45,281 nucleotides of DNA, taken from positions 1 to 45,281 of the forward strand of contig JAUYEO010000169.1 of NCBI GenBank assembly GCA_030689795.1. Direction: 5' to 3'. Under the pieces are notes generated by a model. It saw only the letters and a program-made list of their open reading frames with translations. It was not told the origin of the DNA and did no database searches. Source of the stretch: Desulfobacterales bacterium (lineage in GTDB: Bacteria; Desulfobacterota; Desulfobacteria; Desulfobacterales; RPRI01). This document shows, piece after piece, positions 1 to 44,147 of the stretch; the first letter of the stretch is position 1, and each line of letters begins with the position of its first letter. The translations under genes were made by a program, and so were the position numbers.

Positions 1-138
1 TACTATTATTACTGGTAAATAATTTTATTGAAATGTTCTCAGTATTAAGGCACACTGTAAAAAAATAATTTTTTCCGTCATGTTTTATCAAAAAACGTCA
101 TCCTAATTGCGCCTAACTTTGTATCTTACTGCGGGGTT

Positions 139-198
139 CGATGAGCTAAGGGGCGCGGCGGCTTTTTAGCCGCGACCCTCTTGAGCGACGGGTTAGAT
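139..198 (-). other. Integron attC-like recombination site (partial R' box)
   Basis: Read on the minus strand: ATCTAAC(R'')-CCGTC-GCTCAAG(L'')-AGGGTCGCGGCTAAAAAGCCGCCGCGCCC-CTTAGC(L')-TCATC-G. L''/L' pair with one bulged C (GCTcAAG/CTTAGC), as in attC folding. Only the G of the expected GTTRRRY R' box is present. Confidence 0.72.
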
Positions 199-1717
199 AC
201 TGCGCTTGTTTTTCAAAGACAAGCAGACCTTGTTGGCTCTCAAACATTGCGGCATCTCTGAAGTATGTGCGTGCTTCTCTTTCCAAGCCCAGCCTTTCCG
301 CCACCCGTTTCAAATCAATACGGCTAAGCACATCGATAGTAACAGGTCTTTTTGCATCAAAGAACACGAGGGAATGAAGGAACCGCTTGGTGATGTCGGA
401 ATTGAGCAGAAGGCACATGAGAGTTGCTTCCTCCTCGGAACTGCACGGGATGGAGTAACAGGTATCGTCTAAAACCACCGGCTTGTTCTTGTGCTTTCCG
501 ACGACTACGAATCGGCAATTCTTATAGAGGCCGGAGATCGCCACCTTCCATGGAGAAAAAGTATAGTCTCCGACGCCGAATACAGAGAACTGCGGTCGCT
601 TCTGATAGATTATGCTCTGACGCCGATCCAGAGCCTCCGCGTGACTCAGCAGGTAAGCCCACGTCTTCGGAGCGGTTCTCGCAATAGACGCCGTGTCATC
701 ACCGGGCTTGCGTTGAGTAACAAGAACAGAGCGTTTCGGTATAAGCCTGTCATTGGCGAGGTCGGAAGACTTCAACAACGGATAGAGGTAGGTCGGTTCA
801 ATCCTGACCTGTTCACCAGAACCGTTGACCAGTGTGTCGCCGGACTTACTGAATTCCATGACGGAAGCCGCATCGTGTTTCACGCCAGAGCGCCATGTAT
901 AATAGGCAATACCGTCGAGATCGCGCAGCCGTTGATATTCGTCAACATCCGCGACTAGGTTTTTACCGACCAAGCCGAATGTCGTCAATTTATTATCGAA
1001 AGAAAGGTCTGCATATACTCCTGCCTTGGACAACAGGTCCGGCACACCCATGTGAACAACAAGCAAACAGGCATCAACCGAAACGCCGAAGTGCAATGCA
1101 GCGTCTATCAAATGAAGGCTTGCCCTGCCGATATTAAACTGATGGAGCCAGCCGTGGCGGAGCACTTTCCGAGCGGTTGAAGTCTTACAAAGCATGGCCA
1201 GACTGCCGTGCCGTCCATTAAGAGCTTCGAGGAGTTTGATCAACATCCATTCTGAAATGTCGAAGTTGGCCTTGCCGGTCTTCGCGGCAAAACCGACGTG
1301 ATTTTGGAAGTTTGTTTTCTCAGGAAGATTGTCACTTCTCAAGACCCCAAGCGCGGCATTGGTAACCCATGGAGGATTTCCAAGAACAAGTATTTCACCG
1401 CGAAACGTCGCAAAGAACTCTTTCCAATTGTAGGTGAAGAAATCCTGTCGAGCCACATGCCAATGAACGCCACTTGCATCATGGACTTTATTTCGCAAAT
1501 CCAAAACATAAGCATCATTAATGTCGAAAGCGAATATTTGGCGCACTTTGGAAAAAACATCATGTGCCGCAAGAACAAAACTGCCGTGGCCACACGTCGG
1601 TTCTACAATAACGGATGGTGAAATACCCGCGTAGCGGAGGAAGGTCGTAACAGCGACAGCCAAATCGCGGGGCGTCTGAAAATCTCCGAATTCTATTTTA
1701 GTCTTTTTGATTGTCAT
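146..1717 (-). CDS. Class I SAM-dependent DNA adenine methyltransferase (restriction-modification M subunit)
   Basis: 523 aa ORF; N-terminal EFGDFQTPRDLA, SAM-binding region VEPTCGHGSFVLAA, catalytic NPPW (LVLGNPPWVTN). Start overlaps the upstream endonuclease stop. Confidence 0.88.
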   Translation of the reverse strand: MTIKKTKIEFGDFQTPRDLAVAVTTFLRYAGISPSVIVEPTCGHGSFVLAAHDVFSKVRQIFAFDINDAYVLDLRNKVHDASGVHWHVARQDFFTYNWKEFFATFRGEILVLGNPPWVTNAALGVLRSDNLPEKTNFQNHVGFAAKTGKANFDISEWMLIKLLEALNGRHGSLAMLCKTSTARKVLRHGWLHQFNIGRASLHLIDAALHFGVSVDACLLVVHMGVPDLLSKAGVYADLSFDNKLTTFGLVGKNLVADVDEYQRLRDLDGIAYYTWRSGVKHDAASVMEFSKSGDTLVNGSGEQVRIEPTYLYPLLKSSDLANDRLIPKRSVLVTQRKPGDDTASIARTAPKTWAYLLSHAEALDRRQSIIYQKRPQFSVFGVGDYTFSPWKVAISGLYKNCRFVVVGKHKNKPVVLDDTCYSIPCSSEEEATLMCLLLNSDITKRFLHSLVFFDAKRPVTIDVLSRIDLKRVAERLGLEREARTYFRDAAMFESQQGLLVFEKQAQYLTRRSRGSRLKSRRAP

Positions 1718-2364
1718 GCGATGCGCTGTACGCCGGTGACTTTGCCGGCCTGCTCAATGACCCGGGCGTACTGAAGCCTCCATTGAAGAGCGTTTGAGAT
1801 GGTCAGATAGCCGACTTTGGGTATGGTTTTGAGGATTTCTTTCGCCAATTCCGTGGCCTGAATCTCGTCCACCGGCAAAAAACGCTCCGTCATAAAAGCA
1901 ACAAGATCATCAGCGTTGCCGTTATTGTCCAATATTTTAAGGAGTCCTGTCGTAGTCTGAAAGTCCCCGGTCTGGCCACTTTCGATAAAAATAACGTGTT
2001 TGATATCCAAAGTGGCAGTGCGTGTTTTCCGCTCGTCCTTCTTGTCGTAGACGAAAACCAATAGAGAGTAACCGAGTCCATATATTTTCTGTCGGGCGGA
2101 CTTAAAAGGGCAGGAGGATTGTGGTTGCCGGATACTGGTCACCTTTATGTCTATATCTAGTTTGGGGAAGTCTATCCCTTTCGCTGAGGAACCTCGTGCG
2201 TACTCGTATTTTTTCTGTAGCGCTTCCTGGAACTTATGTTCCAGATAGGTCCCGACGGCTTTGCCGTCCGTCACACCGAAAAGTGATTTCTCTTTGTGCC
2301 CTGATTCCCGATCAGCAAAGGCTTTTGCTTCTGTTTTCAGAAGTTGGACGGTAAGTTTTTGCAT
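1714..2364 (-). CDS. Putative type II restriction endonuclease, PD-(D/E)XK-like
   Basis: 216 aa ORF directly upstream of and overlapping the methyltransferase; GIDFPKLDIDIKVTS resembles a D-(X)n-DxK active site. Assigned from context and motif only. Confidence 0.7.
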   Translation of the reverse strand: MQKLTVQLLKTEAKAFADRESGHKEKSLFGVTDGKAVGTYLEHKFQEALQKKYEYARGSSAKGIDFPKLDIDIKVTSIRQPQSSCPFKSARQKIYGLGYSLLVFVYDKKDERKTRTATLDIKHVIFIESGQTGDFQTTTGLLKILDNNGNADDLVAFMTERFLPVDEIQATELAKEILKTIPKVGYLTISNALQWRLQYARVIEQAGKVTGVQRIA

Positions 2365-2502
2365 ATCATTCTCCCGATATTGGTAATAGGCGGAAAGCTT
2401 TCCATCTATGGCCTATATACGATGGAAAATATTCCCATATATTGTTGTATTATCAATAAAACACGAAAAATACACCATTAAATTTTCCACGTTTTAACGA
2501 TA

Positions 2503-2748
2503 TTGATTGTTACCATGGAAATCAAGAATAAATTTACACCAGATCCCAAAAGAAAACTTATGGATCAGGTGCGACAGGTTCTGAGATATCATCATTATTC
2601 GATGAGCACTGAAAAGACCTACTGTGACTGGATAAGCAAAGTCAAAAGGAAAATAGACCTGAGTTCAGCCCGAACCACCTCATCTATCTTTACAAAAACA
2701 AATAGTTGTGCAATAATAAATCATCAATCACCCTTTATGAACTCGTAA
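2503..2748 (+). pseudogene. intI: N-terminal remnant of an integron integrase (IntI-type tyrosine recombinase)
   Basis: KNKFTPDPKRKLMDQVRQVLRYHHYSMSTEKTYCDWI matches the IntI SAM-like N-terminus. The rest of the integrase, including the catalytic domain, is missing. Confidence 0.75.
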
Positions 2749-2792
2749 CAAGGCATCACCCTTAATCAAAACATATTCTTTATCAGCCAGGC

Positions 2793-4502
2793 TTGTTTAT
2801 TATGCTTCGAGAGCTTTCCATAAGAAACTTTGCAATAATAGACGATCTGAATATCCGCTTTTCAGACGGCCTGACCGTTTTAAGCGGGGAGACGGGCGCG
2901 GGCAAATCCATCATAATCAATGCCGTAAATCTTCTGCTTGGAAGCAGGGCAACCGCCGCAATGGTCAGAACCGGCGCTGAAACGGCGGAGCTTGAAGCCC
3001 TGTTCGAAATTGCACCGGAAAGCAAAGCTGCCCGACTTATGCTGAATCAGGGATATGATCCTTCCGAAGGGCTGCTTATCAGAAGAATTATATCAAAAAA
3101 TGAGCGTCACAGGATATATATAAACGGAAGGCTTTCAACGATTCAGATTTTAGACTCGGTAACCGAGAATCTTGCCAGCATTTCAGGGCAGCACGCGCAC
3201 CAGGGCTTGCTGAAAGAGGAACAGCATCTTTTAATCCTCGACCAGTTTGCCGGCCTTATGCCGATGCGAAACGAACTGGCCGGACTTTACAATGAAATAG
3301 TTCCTCTTGTTAAAAAGCTGAAAGAGCTTAATTCGGTAAAAGATCGCCGCACCGAGCAGATCGAATATCTTTCGTATCAGAAAAAGGAGATAATTGATGC
3401 GGCAATTAAACCGGGGGAGGATGTGTCTCTTGAGCAGGACAGAACAAGGCTGAAAAACAGAGAAACCCTTTTTGAGGCTGTGAACGGCAGCATCGAGGAG
3501 CTTTACAGCGCCCAGGGATCGGTAACCGAGCGGCTCGGAATTGTCAGAAAGAATCTTAATAAGGCGAGCCGGCTTGATCCGGAGCTTTCTTCAAAGGAAG
3601 TGTCTGTTGCTGAAGCCGTCTATAGTATCGAAGAGACCGCAAACTCTCTCAGGGCCTATCTTGCAAAAATCGAAACGGATGAAAAGGTACTTGAGGCGGT
3701 TGAGGCGCGCATTGATGTTTTAAACAAATTGAAGCGCAAATACGGTGGATCTCTCCAGGCGGTTTTTGAACAGCTTGATGCCATCCGGATGGAACTTTCC
3801 GGAATCGAAAATCTCTCCGAAACGATTGATGAAACGCAGAAAAAACTTGTCGGGCTGCATAAGGAGCTTGCTGCCTGCGCAAGAGAGCTTTCTGGAAAAA
3901 GGAGAGAAAGCGCAAAGGATTTTGCTTTAAAAGTGGAAAAAGAGCTTTCAACACTTAAAATGCCCCGCACAAAATTTGAAGTATCCCTGCAAACCCAGCC
4001 GACTTCAGACAGTGCCGATTTGTTTTTTACAACCGCCGGCAGCATCATAAATGAAACCGGGATCGACAGAGCTCTGTTTCTGATCGCTCCGAATGTGGGA
4101 GAGGCTTTAAAGCCTCTCTCCGGCATAGCCTCCGGAGGAGAGCTTTCAAGAGTTATACTCGCATTAAAGGCTCTGCTTGCAGGGACCGAATCGGTTGAGA
4201 CGATTGTTTTTGATGAGGTTGACGCAGGCATCGGGGGTGGTGTCGCCGAGGTTGTCGGAAGAAAAATGGCATCCCTTGCCCGGCATCACCAGATAATATG
4301 CATTACCCATCTTCCGCAGATTGCAAAATTCGGCGATCATCATTTAAGAATTTCGAAACATGTATCAGGAGGAAGAACAAGAACAACAATTACGCCGCTG
4401 GCTGAAAATGAACGAGTAGAAGAAATTGCAAGAATGCTCGGGGGTGAGGAAATCACACGGGCAACGATTGCGCACGCACGCGAGATGCTTGAAAGCAGAT
4501 GA
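2793..4502 (+). CDS. recN: DNA repair protein RecN
   Basis: 569 aa; MLRELSIRNFAIIDDLNIRFSDGLTVLSGETGAGKS Walker A, ASGGELSRVILALK signature, VFDEVDAGIGG Walker B. Confidence 0.97.
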   Translation: MFIMLRELSIRNFAIIDDLNIRFSDGLTVLSGETGAGKSIIINAVNLLLGSRATAAMVRTGAETAELEALFEIAPESKAARLMLNQGYDPSEGLLIRRIISKNERHRIYINGRLSTIQILDSVTENLASISGQHAHQGLLKEEQHLLILDQFAGLMPMRNELAGLYNEIVPLVKKLKELNSVKDRRTEQIEYLSYQKKEIIDAAIKPGEDVSLEQDRTRLKNRETLFEAVNGSIEELYSAQGSVTERLGIVRKNLNKASRLDPELSSKEVSVAEAVYSIEETANSLRAYLAKIETDEKVLEAVEARIDVLNKLKRKYGGSLQAVFEQLDAIRMELSGIENLSETIDETQKKLVGLHKELAACARELSGKRRESAKDFALKVEKELSTLKMPRTKFEVSLQTQPTSDSADLFFTTAGSIINETGIDRALFLIAPNVGEALKPLSGIASGGELSRVILALKALLAGTESVETIVFDEVDAGIGGGVAEVVGRKMASLARHHQIICITHLPQIAKFGDHHLRISKHVSGGRTRTTITPLAENERVEEIARMLGGEEITRATIAHAREMLESR

Positions 4503-6700
4503 TAAATCCCTACAGCATTCCACCCTTACTGACTTTGTGCTGTTTTCTCGGACTGGCCGTATTGACTCTTATGCGGGGCAGAAAAACCGAGGTCAATATC
4601 CTTTTTTTCATTCTCTGCCTTCTCGGGTCCTTTCTGTATATCGATATATTCCTTGTTTTAAATGTGGAATCTGACGCGACCGCTCTTTTTATAAGTCGCG
4701 CCGATCATTTTATTATAATTTACCTCTTTCCTGTTTATGTTCACTTCTTTCACGCGTATCTCAACATTAACAACCGTAAATGGCTTACAGGATTTGCGTA
4801 TGCCTGCGCTTTTGCCCTGATGTGGCTGACTCCCACACCATTATATATTGAATCGATGCACAGGCATTATTTCGGCTACTTTGCAAGGGCAGGAAAGCTT
4901 TACCCTTTATTCGGCCTGGGGAGTCTTTTCATAACGATATATGTTCTTACACTGCTCTATAATGCAATACTCAGGGAAAAAAGCAGCATAAGAAAAAACA
5001 ATCTGAAATATATTTTTACCGGATTCGGGCTCATGGGCCTTATGAACGGGCTGAATGTTTTGCCCATGCACGGTTATCCCGTATATCCGCCGGGCAGTTT
5101 AAGCTTTATCCCCCTTATTGTTTTTGCTGTAGGGCTTTTTAAGTATGATCTTCTCGATATGGGGATTCTGATAAAAAAAAGCCTTGTCTATTCGCTCCTT
5201 ATGGCATTTCTTACCGGATTTTATGCCCTTGTCGTCATGCTGGCACACAAGGTTTTCAAGGATTATTATTTCCCGGGTTCGATATATTTTCCTGTAATTT
5301 TTTTTCTGATTATTACTTTCATTTTCGGGCCGCTCAAGACGCAGATACAGAAGATAGTGGACCGGCTTTTTTTCAAAGGTAAGTATGACTATCAGAAGAC
5401 AATAAAACATGTAAGCCGGATGATAGTCTCCGTCCTCGATTTTAAGGAGATCGGGAGATTACTCACGGAAACAGTCACAAACGCCATACAGGCCGATAAT
5501 TGCGCTCTTTATCTGCGAAACCATTATTTGCATAACGAGGCCGGTTCGGGCTTTGCTATCTGCTCTGCAAAAGGAAGCCATATATATACCGGGAATGAAT
5601 CACTTATTTCAGGGGAATCACCTTTTATAATTCTGATGGAAAAGTGTCGCAGGCCGCTTATCAGAAAGAACCTGATGGAGCGTTCGGATGATCCTGAGAT
5701 ACAAAAAGTTCTTTCGGTAATGGATTCATTTCATGCAGAAATGGCTTTACCGATGATTTTCGAGGAATCGCTGAACGGATTTATTATTCTCGGGGAAAAA
5801 CTTTCCGGTGATCTTTATACACCCGAAGATCTCGATCTTCTTGAAACTCTTTCCATGCAGAGCGCTCTTGCCGTTCAGAATACCCGCTCATACAAGATTA
5901 TAGATGAACTGAATAGGGGTCTCGAAGAAAAGGTTGAACAAAGAACCCGTGATTTGGAAAATGCGCTTAACGAGAAAGAAAAAGCGCAGGAGCAGCTTAT
6001 CAGATCCGAAAGCCTTGCGGCCATCGGCCAGCTTGTGGCAGGGGTTGCGCATGAACTCAATAATCCTCTTTCAAGCAGCACAAGTCTCGTGCAATCGGCC
6101 ATAGAAGACCTTGAGAAATTGAATAAGGAAAAACAGCCTGCCCAGGAATTGATTTCGGATCTTAAATTTGCGGAAAAAGAGCTTGGGAGGGCAAAAGGAG
6201 TTGTCGCAAGCCTCCTCGGTCTTTCAAGACAAAGCCACACCTATTTTGAGACAGTCTGCATGAACCTTGTAATAAAGGATGCGTTAAGAATCCTGTCCAA
6301 CAAGTTAAAAAAGAGCTATGTCGTCATTACGGAAAATTACGAAAATAACCTGCCTGATATCAGAGGCAATTTTGCCAATCTGGGGCAGGTGGCTCTCAAT
6401 ATAATATTAAACGCTTTTCAGGCTGTTGATTTAAAAAGCGGAAAAATCATTCTTTCAACTTATTATGATGATATGAAAAAACAGGTTGTATTTGAATGCG
6501 CAGATAACGGACCGGGCATCCCGGAATCAATCCGTCGGGATATTTTCAAGCCTTTTTACACAACAAAAGATGTCGGAAAGGGAACCGGCCTCGGGCTTTA
6601 CATGTGCCACGAGATTATTGCCAAACATAAAGGGAGTATAACCCTTCAAAGCTCTGAGTCAGGCGGCGCAAAATTTGTTGTCAGGCTGCCTGTTAATTAA
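4499..6700 (+). CDS. Membrane sensor histidine kinase (multi-TM N-terminus, GAF-like, HisKA/HATPase_c)
   Basis: 733 aa; VAGVAHELNNPL H-box, NIILNAFQAV N-box, DNGPGIP, GKGTGLGLYMC. Overlaps the recN stop by 4 nt. Confidence 0.93.
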   Translation: MINPYSIPPLLTLCCFLGLAVLTLMRGRKTEVNILFFILCLLGSFLYIDIFLVLNVESDATALFISRADHFIIIYLFPVYVHFFHAYLNINNRKWLTGFAYACAFALMWLTPTPLYIESMHRHYFGYFARAGKLYPLFGLGSLFITIYVLTLLYNAILREKSSIRKNNLKYIFTGFGLMGLMNGLNVLPMHGYPVYPPGSLSFIPLIVFAVGLFKYDLLDMGILIKKSLVYSLLMAFLTGFYALVVMLAHKVFKDYYFPGSIYFPVIFFLIITFIFGPLKTQIQKIVDRLFFKGKYDYQKTIKHVSRMIVSVLDFKEIGRLLTETVTNAIQADNCALYLRNHYLHNEAGSGFAICSAKGSHIYTGNESLISGESPFIILMEKCRRPLIRKNLMERSDDPEIQKVLSVMDSFHAEMALPMIFEESLNGFIILGEKLSGDLYTPEDLDLLETLSMQSALAVQNTRSYKIIDELNRGLEEKVEQRTRDLENALNEKEKAQEQLIRSESLAAIGQLVAGVAHELNNPLSSSTSLVQSAIEDLEKLNKEKQPAQELISDLKFAEKELGRAKGVVASLLGLSRQSHTYFETVCMNLVIKDALRILSNKLKKSYVVITENYENNLPDIRGNFANLGQVALNIILNAFQAVDLKSGKIILSTYYDDMKKQVVFECADNGPGIPESIRRDIFKPFYTTKDVGKGTGLGLYMCHEIIAKHKGSITLQSSESGGAKFVVRLPVN

Positions 6701-23468: not shown

Positions 23469-24743
23469 ATGTCGAATTTGATACCACCTCATGGCGGAAA
23501 AGGCTTGACCTGTTGTTTACTTGAAGGAAGTGCGCTTGAAGCAGAAAAAAAGAAGGCCAAGGGTCTTAAAACTATTGATGTTTCACCGCGTGAAAACGGA
23601 GATTTGATCATGATGGGAATAGGCGGATTCAGTCCGCTGACAGGCTTCATGACAAAGGCCGACTGGAAGGGAGTTTGCGAAAAATTCCTTCTCGCAGACG
23701 GGACATTCTGGCCCATTCCGGTAACACTTTCCGCTTCCAAAGCGGATGCGGACAGCATTAAAGTCGGAGAAGAAATCGCGCTCCGTGATCCTGAGACCAA
23801 AGAGACCATGGCCACGATGAAGGTCACCGAAAAATACGAGATGACCGAAAAAGATAAAAGATTCGAATGCGAAAAAGTTTACATGGGCGAAGGCACCAAG
23901 ACAGCCGAAGATTTCTGGAAGATCGCACAGAAAGATCATCCGGGCGTCCAGATGGTTATGGAACAAAAAGAGTTTAACCTTGCAGGCCCCGTAAAAGTGT
24001 TAAGCGAGGGCGAATTCCCGGTAAAATACGCAGGAGTTTACATGAGACCTGCCGAATCGAGAAAGATTTTCGATGAAAGAGGATGGAAGGAAATCGCAGC
24101 CCTTCAGCTCAGGAATCCCATGCACAGGTCGCATGAATACCTCTGCAAGATAGCTGTCGAAGTGTGTGACGGTGTTTTCATTCACTCGCTTGTCGGCAAT
24201 TTAAAACCCGGCGACATTCCCGCTGATGTCCGCGTAAGATGCATTGACGCTCTTGTAAAAAATTATTTTGTCGAAAAAAATGTTCTGCAGGGCGGCTATC
24301 CTCTTGACATGCGTTATGCGGGCCCGAGAGAAGCTCTTCTTCACTCAACATTCCGCCAGAACTACGGATGCTCACGGATGATCATCGGCCGCGACCATGC
24401 AGGCGTAGGCGACTTCTACGGCATGTTCGAAGCACAGACAATTTTCGATAAGATACCTCATCCGAAAGAACCGGGTAAGGCGCTTCTTTGCAAGCCGCTC
24501 ATGATAGACTGGACATTCTACTGCTTCAAGTGCGACGGCATGGCATCTCACAGAACCTGCCCGCACACCAAAGCCGACCGCGTTATATTAAGCGGAACAG
24601 CGCTCCGCAAGGGTCTTTCCGAAAACACCCCGATTCCGGATCACTTTGGCCGCGACGAAGTACTTGTGATTCTTAAGGAATATTATGCAGGGTTGACCGA
24701 AAAGGTCGAAGTTAAACTGCATGGAGCAGCTACCGGAAAATAA
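23469..24743 (+). CDS. sat: Sulfate adenylyltransferase (ATP sulfurylase)
   Basis: 424 aa; [14 protein letters not shown] (QxRNP/HxxH), [13 protein letters not shown]-terminal zinc-binding-like [14 protein letters not shown]. Confidence 0.97.
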
Positions 24744-24864
24744 ATTTATAGTATATGAATTTCTTTTTTGGACGCAGATGAACGCAGATTTTAGAGATTT
24801 CAAATATAAAGAGCTAATAGAATGTTTATCTGCGGGGATCGGCGAAAATCGGCGTCCTAATTAA
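24741..24864 (+). repeat. Repeat family B, copy 1
   Basis: TAAATTTATAGTATATGAATTTCTTTTTTGGACGCAGATGAACGCAGAT matches the reverse complement of 37763-37811 at 46/49; distal arm atctgcggggatcggcgaaaatcggcgtcctaatta resembles 37640-37675. The first three bases are the sat stop. Confidence 0.88.
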
Positions 24865-24893
24865 TTTAACAGGAAAACGTTCTTAAAGTAAAT

Positions 24894-24928
24894 AAAAAGG
24901 GAGATGGTTTCAAACCATCTCCCTTTTT
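24894..24928 (+). terminator. Rho-independent terminator downstream of sat
   Basis: AAAAAGGGAGATGGTTT-C-AAACCATCTCCCTTTTT perfect palindrome followed by a T run. Confidence 0.9.
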
Positions 24929-25009
24929 ATTTTTTTTACCGGAATTGCCGGAATTTTATGAAGATTATTAACTATTGTCCATCCGGAAACAAATTATGGA
25001 CACAGGTGA

Positions 25010-37604: not shown

Positions 37605-37639
37605 TTTCCCCTCCCTTAAACTTTGATTAAATCTGGTTT

Positions 37640-37811
37640 TAATTAGGACCCAGATTTTCGCCGATATCCGCAGATGAATATTTTCTCAAATTATCAAATG
37701 CCTTACGTTTGACTTCTGGCTTATTGCCAATTACTTAGTTCTTTATATTTAAAATCTTGATGATCTGCGTTCATCTGCGTCCAAAAAGGAAATTCCTATA
37801 CTATATATTTA
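37640..37811 (-). repeat. Repeat family B, copy 2
   Basis: Inverted relative to copy 1 at 24741-24864; 37763-37811 matches at 46/49, plus a longer internal segment. Confidence 0.88.
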
Positions 37812-37821
37812 TTATCCCTGT

Positions 37822-43849: not shown

Positions 43850-43987
43850 CTTGCAAACCTCCTATAACTTATTGTATCCATATAATAAACTGTTTGATAA
43901 TAAGAACTGCTGACTATTTAAAACATACTTGGAACATTCGTCTATTTCTACCAGCAACAGTTTAATAAGTAAAGAAAAAACAGACCT

Positions 43988-44147
43988 GATGTACCCGAAA
44001 AAGTCAAATTTCAGACGGCAAAGTAAAAAGCTCAGTATGCAAGGCGCGCGAATCTTGAGGAATGAAGCGTACTTTTTGGTACGCTGCAATGACGAAAGAT
44101 GAAGCGTCCGCCGCGGCGGACAGAATGACTTTTTACGAAGCCGTCAG
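43988..44147. repeat. Repeat family C, copy just after the thiolase stop
   Basis: Right end atgactttttacgaagccgtcag, degenerate left end tgatgtacccgaaaaagtca; internal agcgtac-tttttg-gtacgct and tccgccgcggcgga palindromes. Confidence 0.72.

What the first reader, a model, noticed from the sequence alone, without database searches (positions are those of the whole stretch)
139..2748. Degraded integron: truncated intI divergent from a restriction-modification cassette ending in attC, beside recN
Seen: an IntI-like N-terminus on + (2503-2748), then R and M genes on - running away from it, then an attC-like site at 139-198. This is the canonical integron layout (intI divergent from the array, attC at the 3' end of the cassette). 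Inference: a two-gene R-M cassette left stranded after loss of the integrase catalytic domain.
Basis: partly seen in the sequence, partly recalled or inferred. Interest (0 to 1): 0.74.

Follow-up and report, generated by a model that had tools for sequence, protein, structure and literature searches.

The report
Integron remnant split by recombinase-trio element
Next to recN in an uncultured sulfate-reducer-like bacterium lies a real broken integron (a decapitated integrase gene plus a restriction-modification cassette), and the cassette's recombination site was cut open by a mobile element made of three tyrosine recombinases that, in dozens of genomes, repeatedly inserts at exactly that kind of site.

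Summary
IntI homology covers only 2515-2637. From about 2622 on the DNA is the native recN upstream region, joined to intI codon ~41 at a short microhomology; relatives have kdtA there and no intI. The R and M genes (1714-2364, 146-1717, minus strand) form a type II R-M pair, and homologous pairs sit in attC-bounded cassettes in three other genomes. The attC (R'' 198-192, L'' 186-176, L' 153-145, minus strand) is only half a site. Its R' core is missing because window 1-138 is the end of a ~3.1 kb mobile element with three overlapping tyrosine-recombinase genes (best seen on contig C186). The array continues beyond the element: methyltransferase, HigB/HigA-like and cupin cassettes with CM-detectable attCs. 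The same element end occurs 59 times in 26 of 390 genomes of the order. Its outer flank is an attC half far more often than chance (27/60 above the 99% shuffle level), and 15 of 17 opposite ends abut a GTT core. I read this as a RIT-like element family that targets attC cores. Known attC-targeting elements (IS1111-attC, group IIC-attC introns) are unrelated. The physical join of window and C186 is an assembly inference.

The parts
1..138 (+). Right terminus of a ~3.1 kb element encoding three tyrosine recombinases (genes on contig C186); conserved end GCGCCTAACTTTGTATCTTACTGCGGGGTT
   Evidence: 100% identity to the ends of C186 and C206; conserved terminus in 20+ loci and 59 genome matches with 0 in the reversed-pattern control
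114..139 (+). Diagnostic end motif YAACT-N9-ACYGCGGGGTTC
139..200 (-). Interrupted attC of the R-M cassette: R'' 198-192, L'' 186-176, central hairpin 171-157, L' 153-145, CG 140-139; R' (GTTRRRY) displaced by the element
   Evidence: fold z -2.5/-2.7; stem+GTT score 31.5 against 26.0 at the 99% shuffle level; same geometry at many sites and absent 250-890 nt further out
146..1717 (-). Type II DNA adenine methyltransferase (M) of the cassette; stop codon lies inside the attC
   Evidence: PADLOC MTase_II 515.8 bits; PF02384 22.4 bits
1714..2364 (-). Type II restriction endonuclease (R), 4-bp overlap with M
   Evidence: NF052465 344 bits; PADLOC REase_II 325.7 bits
2492..2498 (-). Weak candidate attI/cassette core GTTAAAA (position approximate; does not match the R'' of the attC)
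   Evidence: read from the sequence; inference only
2515..2637 (+). intI 5' fragment, about 41 codons
   Evidence: PF13495, TIGR02249, NF011946 N-terminal matches; 97% identical over 66 bp to intI on C299
2622..2792 (+). Native recN upstream region; microhomology junction (TGTGACtGGATAaG) with the intI fragment
   Evidence: alignment A1 with G001 and G008
2802..4502 (+). recN, chromosomal neighbour
   Evidence: RecN relatives in 37 of 40 genomes

Best explanation
This is a fragment of a chromosomal integron. Shown from sequence: the first 41 codons of intI, a two-gene type II R-M cassette read away from it, and an attC at the cassette's 3' end whose R' core has been replaced by the terminus of a mobile element that encodes three overlapping tyrosine recombinases. 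The element family sits, in one orientation, between the L' box and the GTTRRRY core of many different attC sites. Inferred: the element excises as a circle whose joined ends form a palindromic core (ACYGCGGGGTT-spacer-AACCYCGCRGT). Its recombinases exchange that core with the L/R core of an attC, double-stranded or folded. This separates L' from R', so the upstream cassette (here R-M) can no longer be excised by IntI, while the downstream cassette keeps its own GTTRRRY start. Inferred: a separate rearrangement joined intI codon ~41 to the recN upstream region, replacing the ancestral kdtA side. The R-M pair should still work as ordinary restriction-modification; I did not test this.
For: Window 1-140 equals the ends of C186 and C206. 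C186 reads: element end, three recombinase genes overlapping by 4 and 10 bp, inverted terminal repeat, GTTATGC, then methyltransferase, HigB/HigA-like and cupin cassettes. A class 1-derived attC model finds attCs after the methyltransferase and HigA genes (21.9 and 27.3 bits) and none in 81 kb of recN-locus controls. The element end occurs in 20 related loci, at 59 sites in 26/390 genomes, 0 in the reversed-pattern control. Outer flanks: 27/60 exceed the 99% shuffle level (0.6 expected), against 1.3% of windows 250-890 nt further out. Opposite ends: 15/17 show AAC (GTT core) exactly 5 bp outside the repeat. Where the flank allowed the test, several adjacent cassettes end in an attC whose R'' is the inverse of their own start (L013, L023, L107, L109, L031, L037 exact; L033 with 1 mismatch). 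Homologous R-M pairs are cassettes elsewhere. recN without insert in relatives.
Against: The window-C186 join rests on a 140-bp identical overlap that C206 shares equally, so which right partner belongs to the C186 copy is unresolved and the MAG may mix strains. The class 1-derived attC model does not recognise the half attC in the window and finds nothing significant genome-wide. About half of the 60 flanks are not clear attCs by my score; some are attCs by eye with short arms, others (for example most of those in genome G355) are not. No cassette start matching the R-M attC was found. Nothing shows that the element moves or that any enzyme is active.
Confidence: 0.84

Rival explanations
1. 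Simple decay: a plain integron remnant (intI fragment, R-M cassette, terminal attC) with no second element; window 1-138 is just a chromosomal repeat.
For: intI fragment, R-M genes and attC-like hairpin are all present.
Against: Window 1-140 is the conserved terminus of a recombinase-trio element found in many genomes, always followed by different DNA; the R' core is missing exactly at the junction.
Confidence: 0.06
2. The trio is itself a gene cassette: IntI captured a circular trio at the attC, so IntI rather than the trio made the junction.
For: The junction lies at the IntI crossover point G|TT, and the right neighbour restores a GTTRRRY core.
Against: A cassette would begin TTRRRY and end in its own attC; the element begins AACCCC and ends in an inverted repeat of its start. 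It encodes its own recombinases and also occurs at non-attC sites.
Confidence: 0.08
3. The hairpin is a rho-independent-type terminator or part of the mobile element and not an attC; R-M beside an IntI-like fragment is coincidence.
For: The class 1-derived attC model rejects the half site, and R-M homologues also occur on a plasmid in a stretch with no annotated integron genes.
Against: R''/L''/L' geometry and fold; homologous R-M pairs are attC-bounded cassettes in three genomes; the flank differs at every element copy; intact cassettes with model-supported attCs lie across the element on C186.
Confidence: 0.05

Closest known systems
Sedentary chromosomal integron / CALIN with VCR-like attC sites
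   Same: intI oriented away from an array; cassettes bounded by attC; toxin-antitoxin-like and R-M cassettes; GTTRRRY cores matched by each cassette's own R''
   Different: intI reduced to ~41 codons and fused to the recN upstream region; attI not found; one attC lacks R'
RIT (recombinase in trio) elements (PMC3414803, PMC8138268)
   Same: Three adjacent overlapping tyrosine-recombinase genes on one strand; inverted terminal repeats; ~3.1 kb against ~3.5 kb; multiple copies per genome
   Different: Proteins of 292, 303 and 328 aa, so the first lacks room for the double core-binding domain of RitA; only 24-30% identity to the one plasmid-borne trio compared; the RIT section I read describes no attC specificity
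[quoted passage not shown]
   Same: Mobile elements that specifically invade integron attC sites, with a circular intermediate described there
   Different: DEDD transposase with seekRNA there; three tyrosine recombinases here
Group IIC-attC introns (PMC7923331)
   Same: Insert into attC hairpins against the direction of cassette transcription
   Different: Retroelement with ribozyme and reverse transcriptase; a different position in attC (TTGT/T)
GInt islands and strand-biased circularizing elements (PMC5385486, PMC10214605)
   Same: Several tyrosine recombinases required together
   Different: Four-gene modules; no attC target described in the passages I read

Membership tests
Integron | Integron integrase gene (full length, with IntI-specific patch) | tested here: not met
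   Only N-terminal model positions match in the window; other IntIs exist on C70, C160, C299
Integron | attI site next to intI | tested here: inconclusive
   Only a weak GTTAAAA core between R and intI, read by eye
Integron gene cassette (R-M) | attC at the 3' end with R''-L''-L'-R' | tested here: inconclusive
   R'', L'', L' present; R' displaced by the element; class 1-derived model rejects the half site
Integron gene cassette (R-M) | Cassette start is the inverse of R'' of its attC | tested here: not met
   No GTTAGAT found between 2365 and 2515, by eye; met for the C186 methyltransferase cassette and the homologous R-M cassette in L173
Type II R-M system | REase and MTase pair matching curated families | tested here: met
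RIT element | Three overlapping tyrosine-recombinase genes in one direction | tested here: met
   L013 258-3021, overlaps of 4 and 10 bp, each PF00589
RIT element | Belonging to RitA/RitB/RitC sequence families; RitA with two CB domains, RitC with an extra C-terminal helix | tested here: inconclusive
   One single-CB SAM-like match per protein; 24-30% to a Bradyrhizobium trio; no Rit-specific model or reference set searched
IS1111-attC | DEDD transposase | tested here: not met
   The element's genes are Phage_integrase family
Group IIC-attC intron | Group II intron RNA and reverse transcriptase | tested here: not met
   No group II intron in L012 or L013 at gathering threshold; element ORFs are recombinases

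The most novel reading that the evidence does not exclude
A family of recombinase-trio elements, widespread in this bacterial order, that uses the attC recombination core of integron cassettes as its specific, oriented target, splitting L' from R' and locking cassettes in place: a third, mechanistically independent kind of attC-targeting element and a defined target for RIT-like elements.
Probability: 0.8. Interest if true: 0.68.

Novelty: new variant of a known kind. Interest (0 to 1): 0.6.

Why it matters
RIT-like trios have no demonstrated mobility or rule for target choice in the literature I read (PMC3414803), and why three recombinases are needed is open. A trio family with sharp ends and a recurrent, structured target makes both questions testable. 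It also adds a third kind of attC-targeting element and a way by which integron cassettes, here a restriction-modification pair, become fixed.

Tried and rejected
Rfam: no hit at E<=1 in window 1-3000. Class 1-derived attC model on the window half site and genome-wide: no usable hit. End pattern with 8 instead of 9 spacer bases: three matches only. Viral contigs: with 8 N none, with 9 N three matches without the wider end consensus, taken as chance. A half-attC model without R' was dropped because the alignment lost register. Search for the kdtA/nucleotidyltransferase side of recN in the own genome: nothing. Suspected group II intron in the attC flank of L035: not confirmed by Rfam. Idea that the trio is an IntI-captured cassette: rejected, its start is AACCCC and not TTRRRY.

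Full report
Observation. The window is contig C359 of a 3.04 Mb draft genome (376 contigs, 96.6% complete, 3.75% contamination) and starts at the contig end. The IntI piece is limited to 2515-2637. From ~2622 on the sequence aligns with the recN upstream DNA of same-genus genomes G001 and G008, which have no intI. Four same-genus genomes have kdtA upstream of recN, and none of the 29 relatives' recN loci has IntI there. kdtA and its neighbour were not found in this genome, which may be loss or incomplete assembly. The join falls in a short microhomology (TGTGACtGGATAaG). Contig C299 carries a nearly identical intI 5' part (64/66 bp) followed by a catalytic domain that lacks model positions ~46-76.

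R-M cassette. R (1714-2364) and M (146-1717) are a type II pair with the same gene order and 4-bp overlap as a plasmid pair in Klebsiella. Homologues with 63-70% identity to R were found in other genomes of the order. In L173, L176 and L177 the pair lies beside attC sites that my class 1-derived covariance model detects. In L173 the cassette starts GTTATAGTG and its attC has R'' CACTATAAC, a textbook two-gene cassette. This supports the reading of the window's R-M pair as a cassette, although its own start (GTTAGAT expected) is not visible between R and intI.

attC and the second element. On the minus strand the site reads GTATCTAAC (R''), CGCTCAAGAGGG (L''), hairpin, CCCCTTAGC (L'), TCAT, CG, and then AACCCCGCAGT instead of GTTRRRY. 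That sequence, window 138 down to 1, is shared exactly with C186 and C206. On C186 it leads into three tyrosine-recombinase genes (292, 303, 328 aa; Phage_integrase domains), an inverted copy of the terminus (AACTGCGAGGTT), TATGG, GTTATGC and a run of cassettes. The methyltransferase cassette starts GTTATGC and its attC R'' is GCATAAC, as the cassette rule demands. The attC model finds this attC (21.9 bits) and the next one (27.3 bits), and nothing in 81 kb of recN control loci.

Generality. A scan with the third recombinase gave 20 loci, most from MAGs labelled Desulfobacteraceae or related deltaproteobacteria and one each labelled Elusimicrobia and Anaerolineales. The conserved terminus as a pattern with nine spacer bases gave 59 matches in 26 of 390 genomes of the order and none for the reversed pattern. 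I extracted 61 distinct outer flanks. Scored for a stem starting at the junction and closing just before a GTT, 27 of 60 exceed the 99% level of dinucleotide shuffles and 32 exceed the 95% level (0.6 and 3 expected). Windows 250-890 nt further out behave like the null (1.3% and 4.8%). The cores found are of the usual attC kind (GTTAGGC, GTTGGGC, GTTCGGC, GTTATGC). The base next to the junction is G in 53 of 61 flanks (all 47 outside one terminus subfamily), which corresponds to the C of CG|TT. At the other end, 15 of 17 copies have AAC exactly five bases outside the repeat. Where the flank allowed the test, several neighbouring cassettes end in an attC whose R'' is the inverse of their own start. 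About ten copies carry a complete trio; others have internal deletions, are cut by contig ends, or are solo ends.

Mechanism. Shown: position, orientation and recurrence. Inferred: a circular form whose joined ends make a palindromic core, recombined with the L/R core of attC. Consequence by established integron biology: an attC without R' should not be a good IntI substrate, so the R-M cassette is fixed here twice over, by the missing R' and by the decapitated intI in cis. Whether other IntIs in the genome could act in trans is open.

Known relatives. attC-targeting elements described so far in what I could read are IS1111-attC sequences (DEDD transposase; PMC11187229; PMC11089894) and group IIC-attC introns (PMC7923331). 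RIT elements share the trio layout, but the RIT section I read reports no defined target (PMC3414803). Four papers held both 'recombinase in trio' and 'integron', and the three I looked into show no link between the two. The library lacks many subscription papers, including the main RIT survey (Ricker 2013), so novelty is provisional.

Limits. The genomes are draft assemblies; the C359-C186 and C206-C186 joins are overlaps, not reads. About half of the flanks are not clear attCs by my score. The attC model is built from eight class 1 sites only and does not recognise the interrupted site in the window.

Noticed in passing
L012 (C206) 5523-5717, minus strand: A second intI 5' fragment (model positions 1-63) with an in-frame TAG, near a HicA/HicB-like gene pair and another interrupted attC with the same element end.
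   Followed up: partly
L004 (C70) 560-1876; L014 (C160) 1-990: Further strong integron-integrase matches in the same genome; the C70 one (438 aa) has an extra N-terminal segment, and no cassette array is evident on these short stretches.
   Followed up: no
G355 contigs C9, C43, C61, C62, C74, C217, C433, C557: Eight copies of a related terminus in one genome, mostly at sites that do not score as attC, as if this subfamily has a looser target.
   Followed up: partly
L137, L138, L109, L033, L087, L130: Short internally deleted derivatives of the trio element (about 390-1235 bp between both termini), possibly non-autonomous copies.
   Followed up: partly
L031 7263-7460: A group II intron D1-D4 match (RF02005, 128 bits) overlaps the outer junction of an element copy whose flank does not look like attC.
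   Followed up: no
element terminus, window 107-120 minus strand: The terminus contains ACAAAGTTAGGCGC, which resembles the class 1 attI core (AAAACAAAGTTAGGC); it may be a recombinase binding site.
   Followed up: no
window 24735-24938, 37639-37817, 43987-44145: Dispersed repeats of 50-180 bp shared with C281, C206 and C119 (72-95% identity), possibly small mobile repeats.
   Followed up: no
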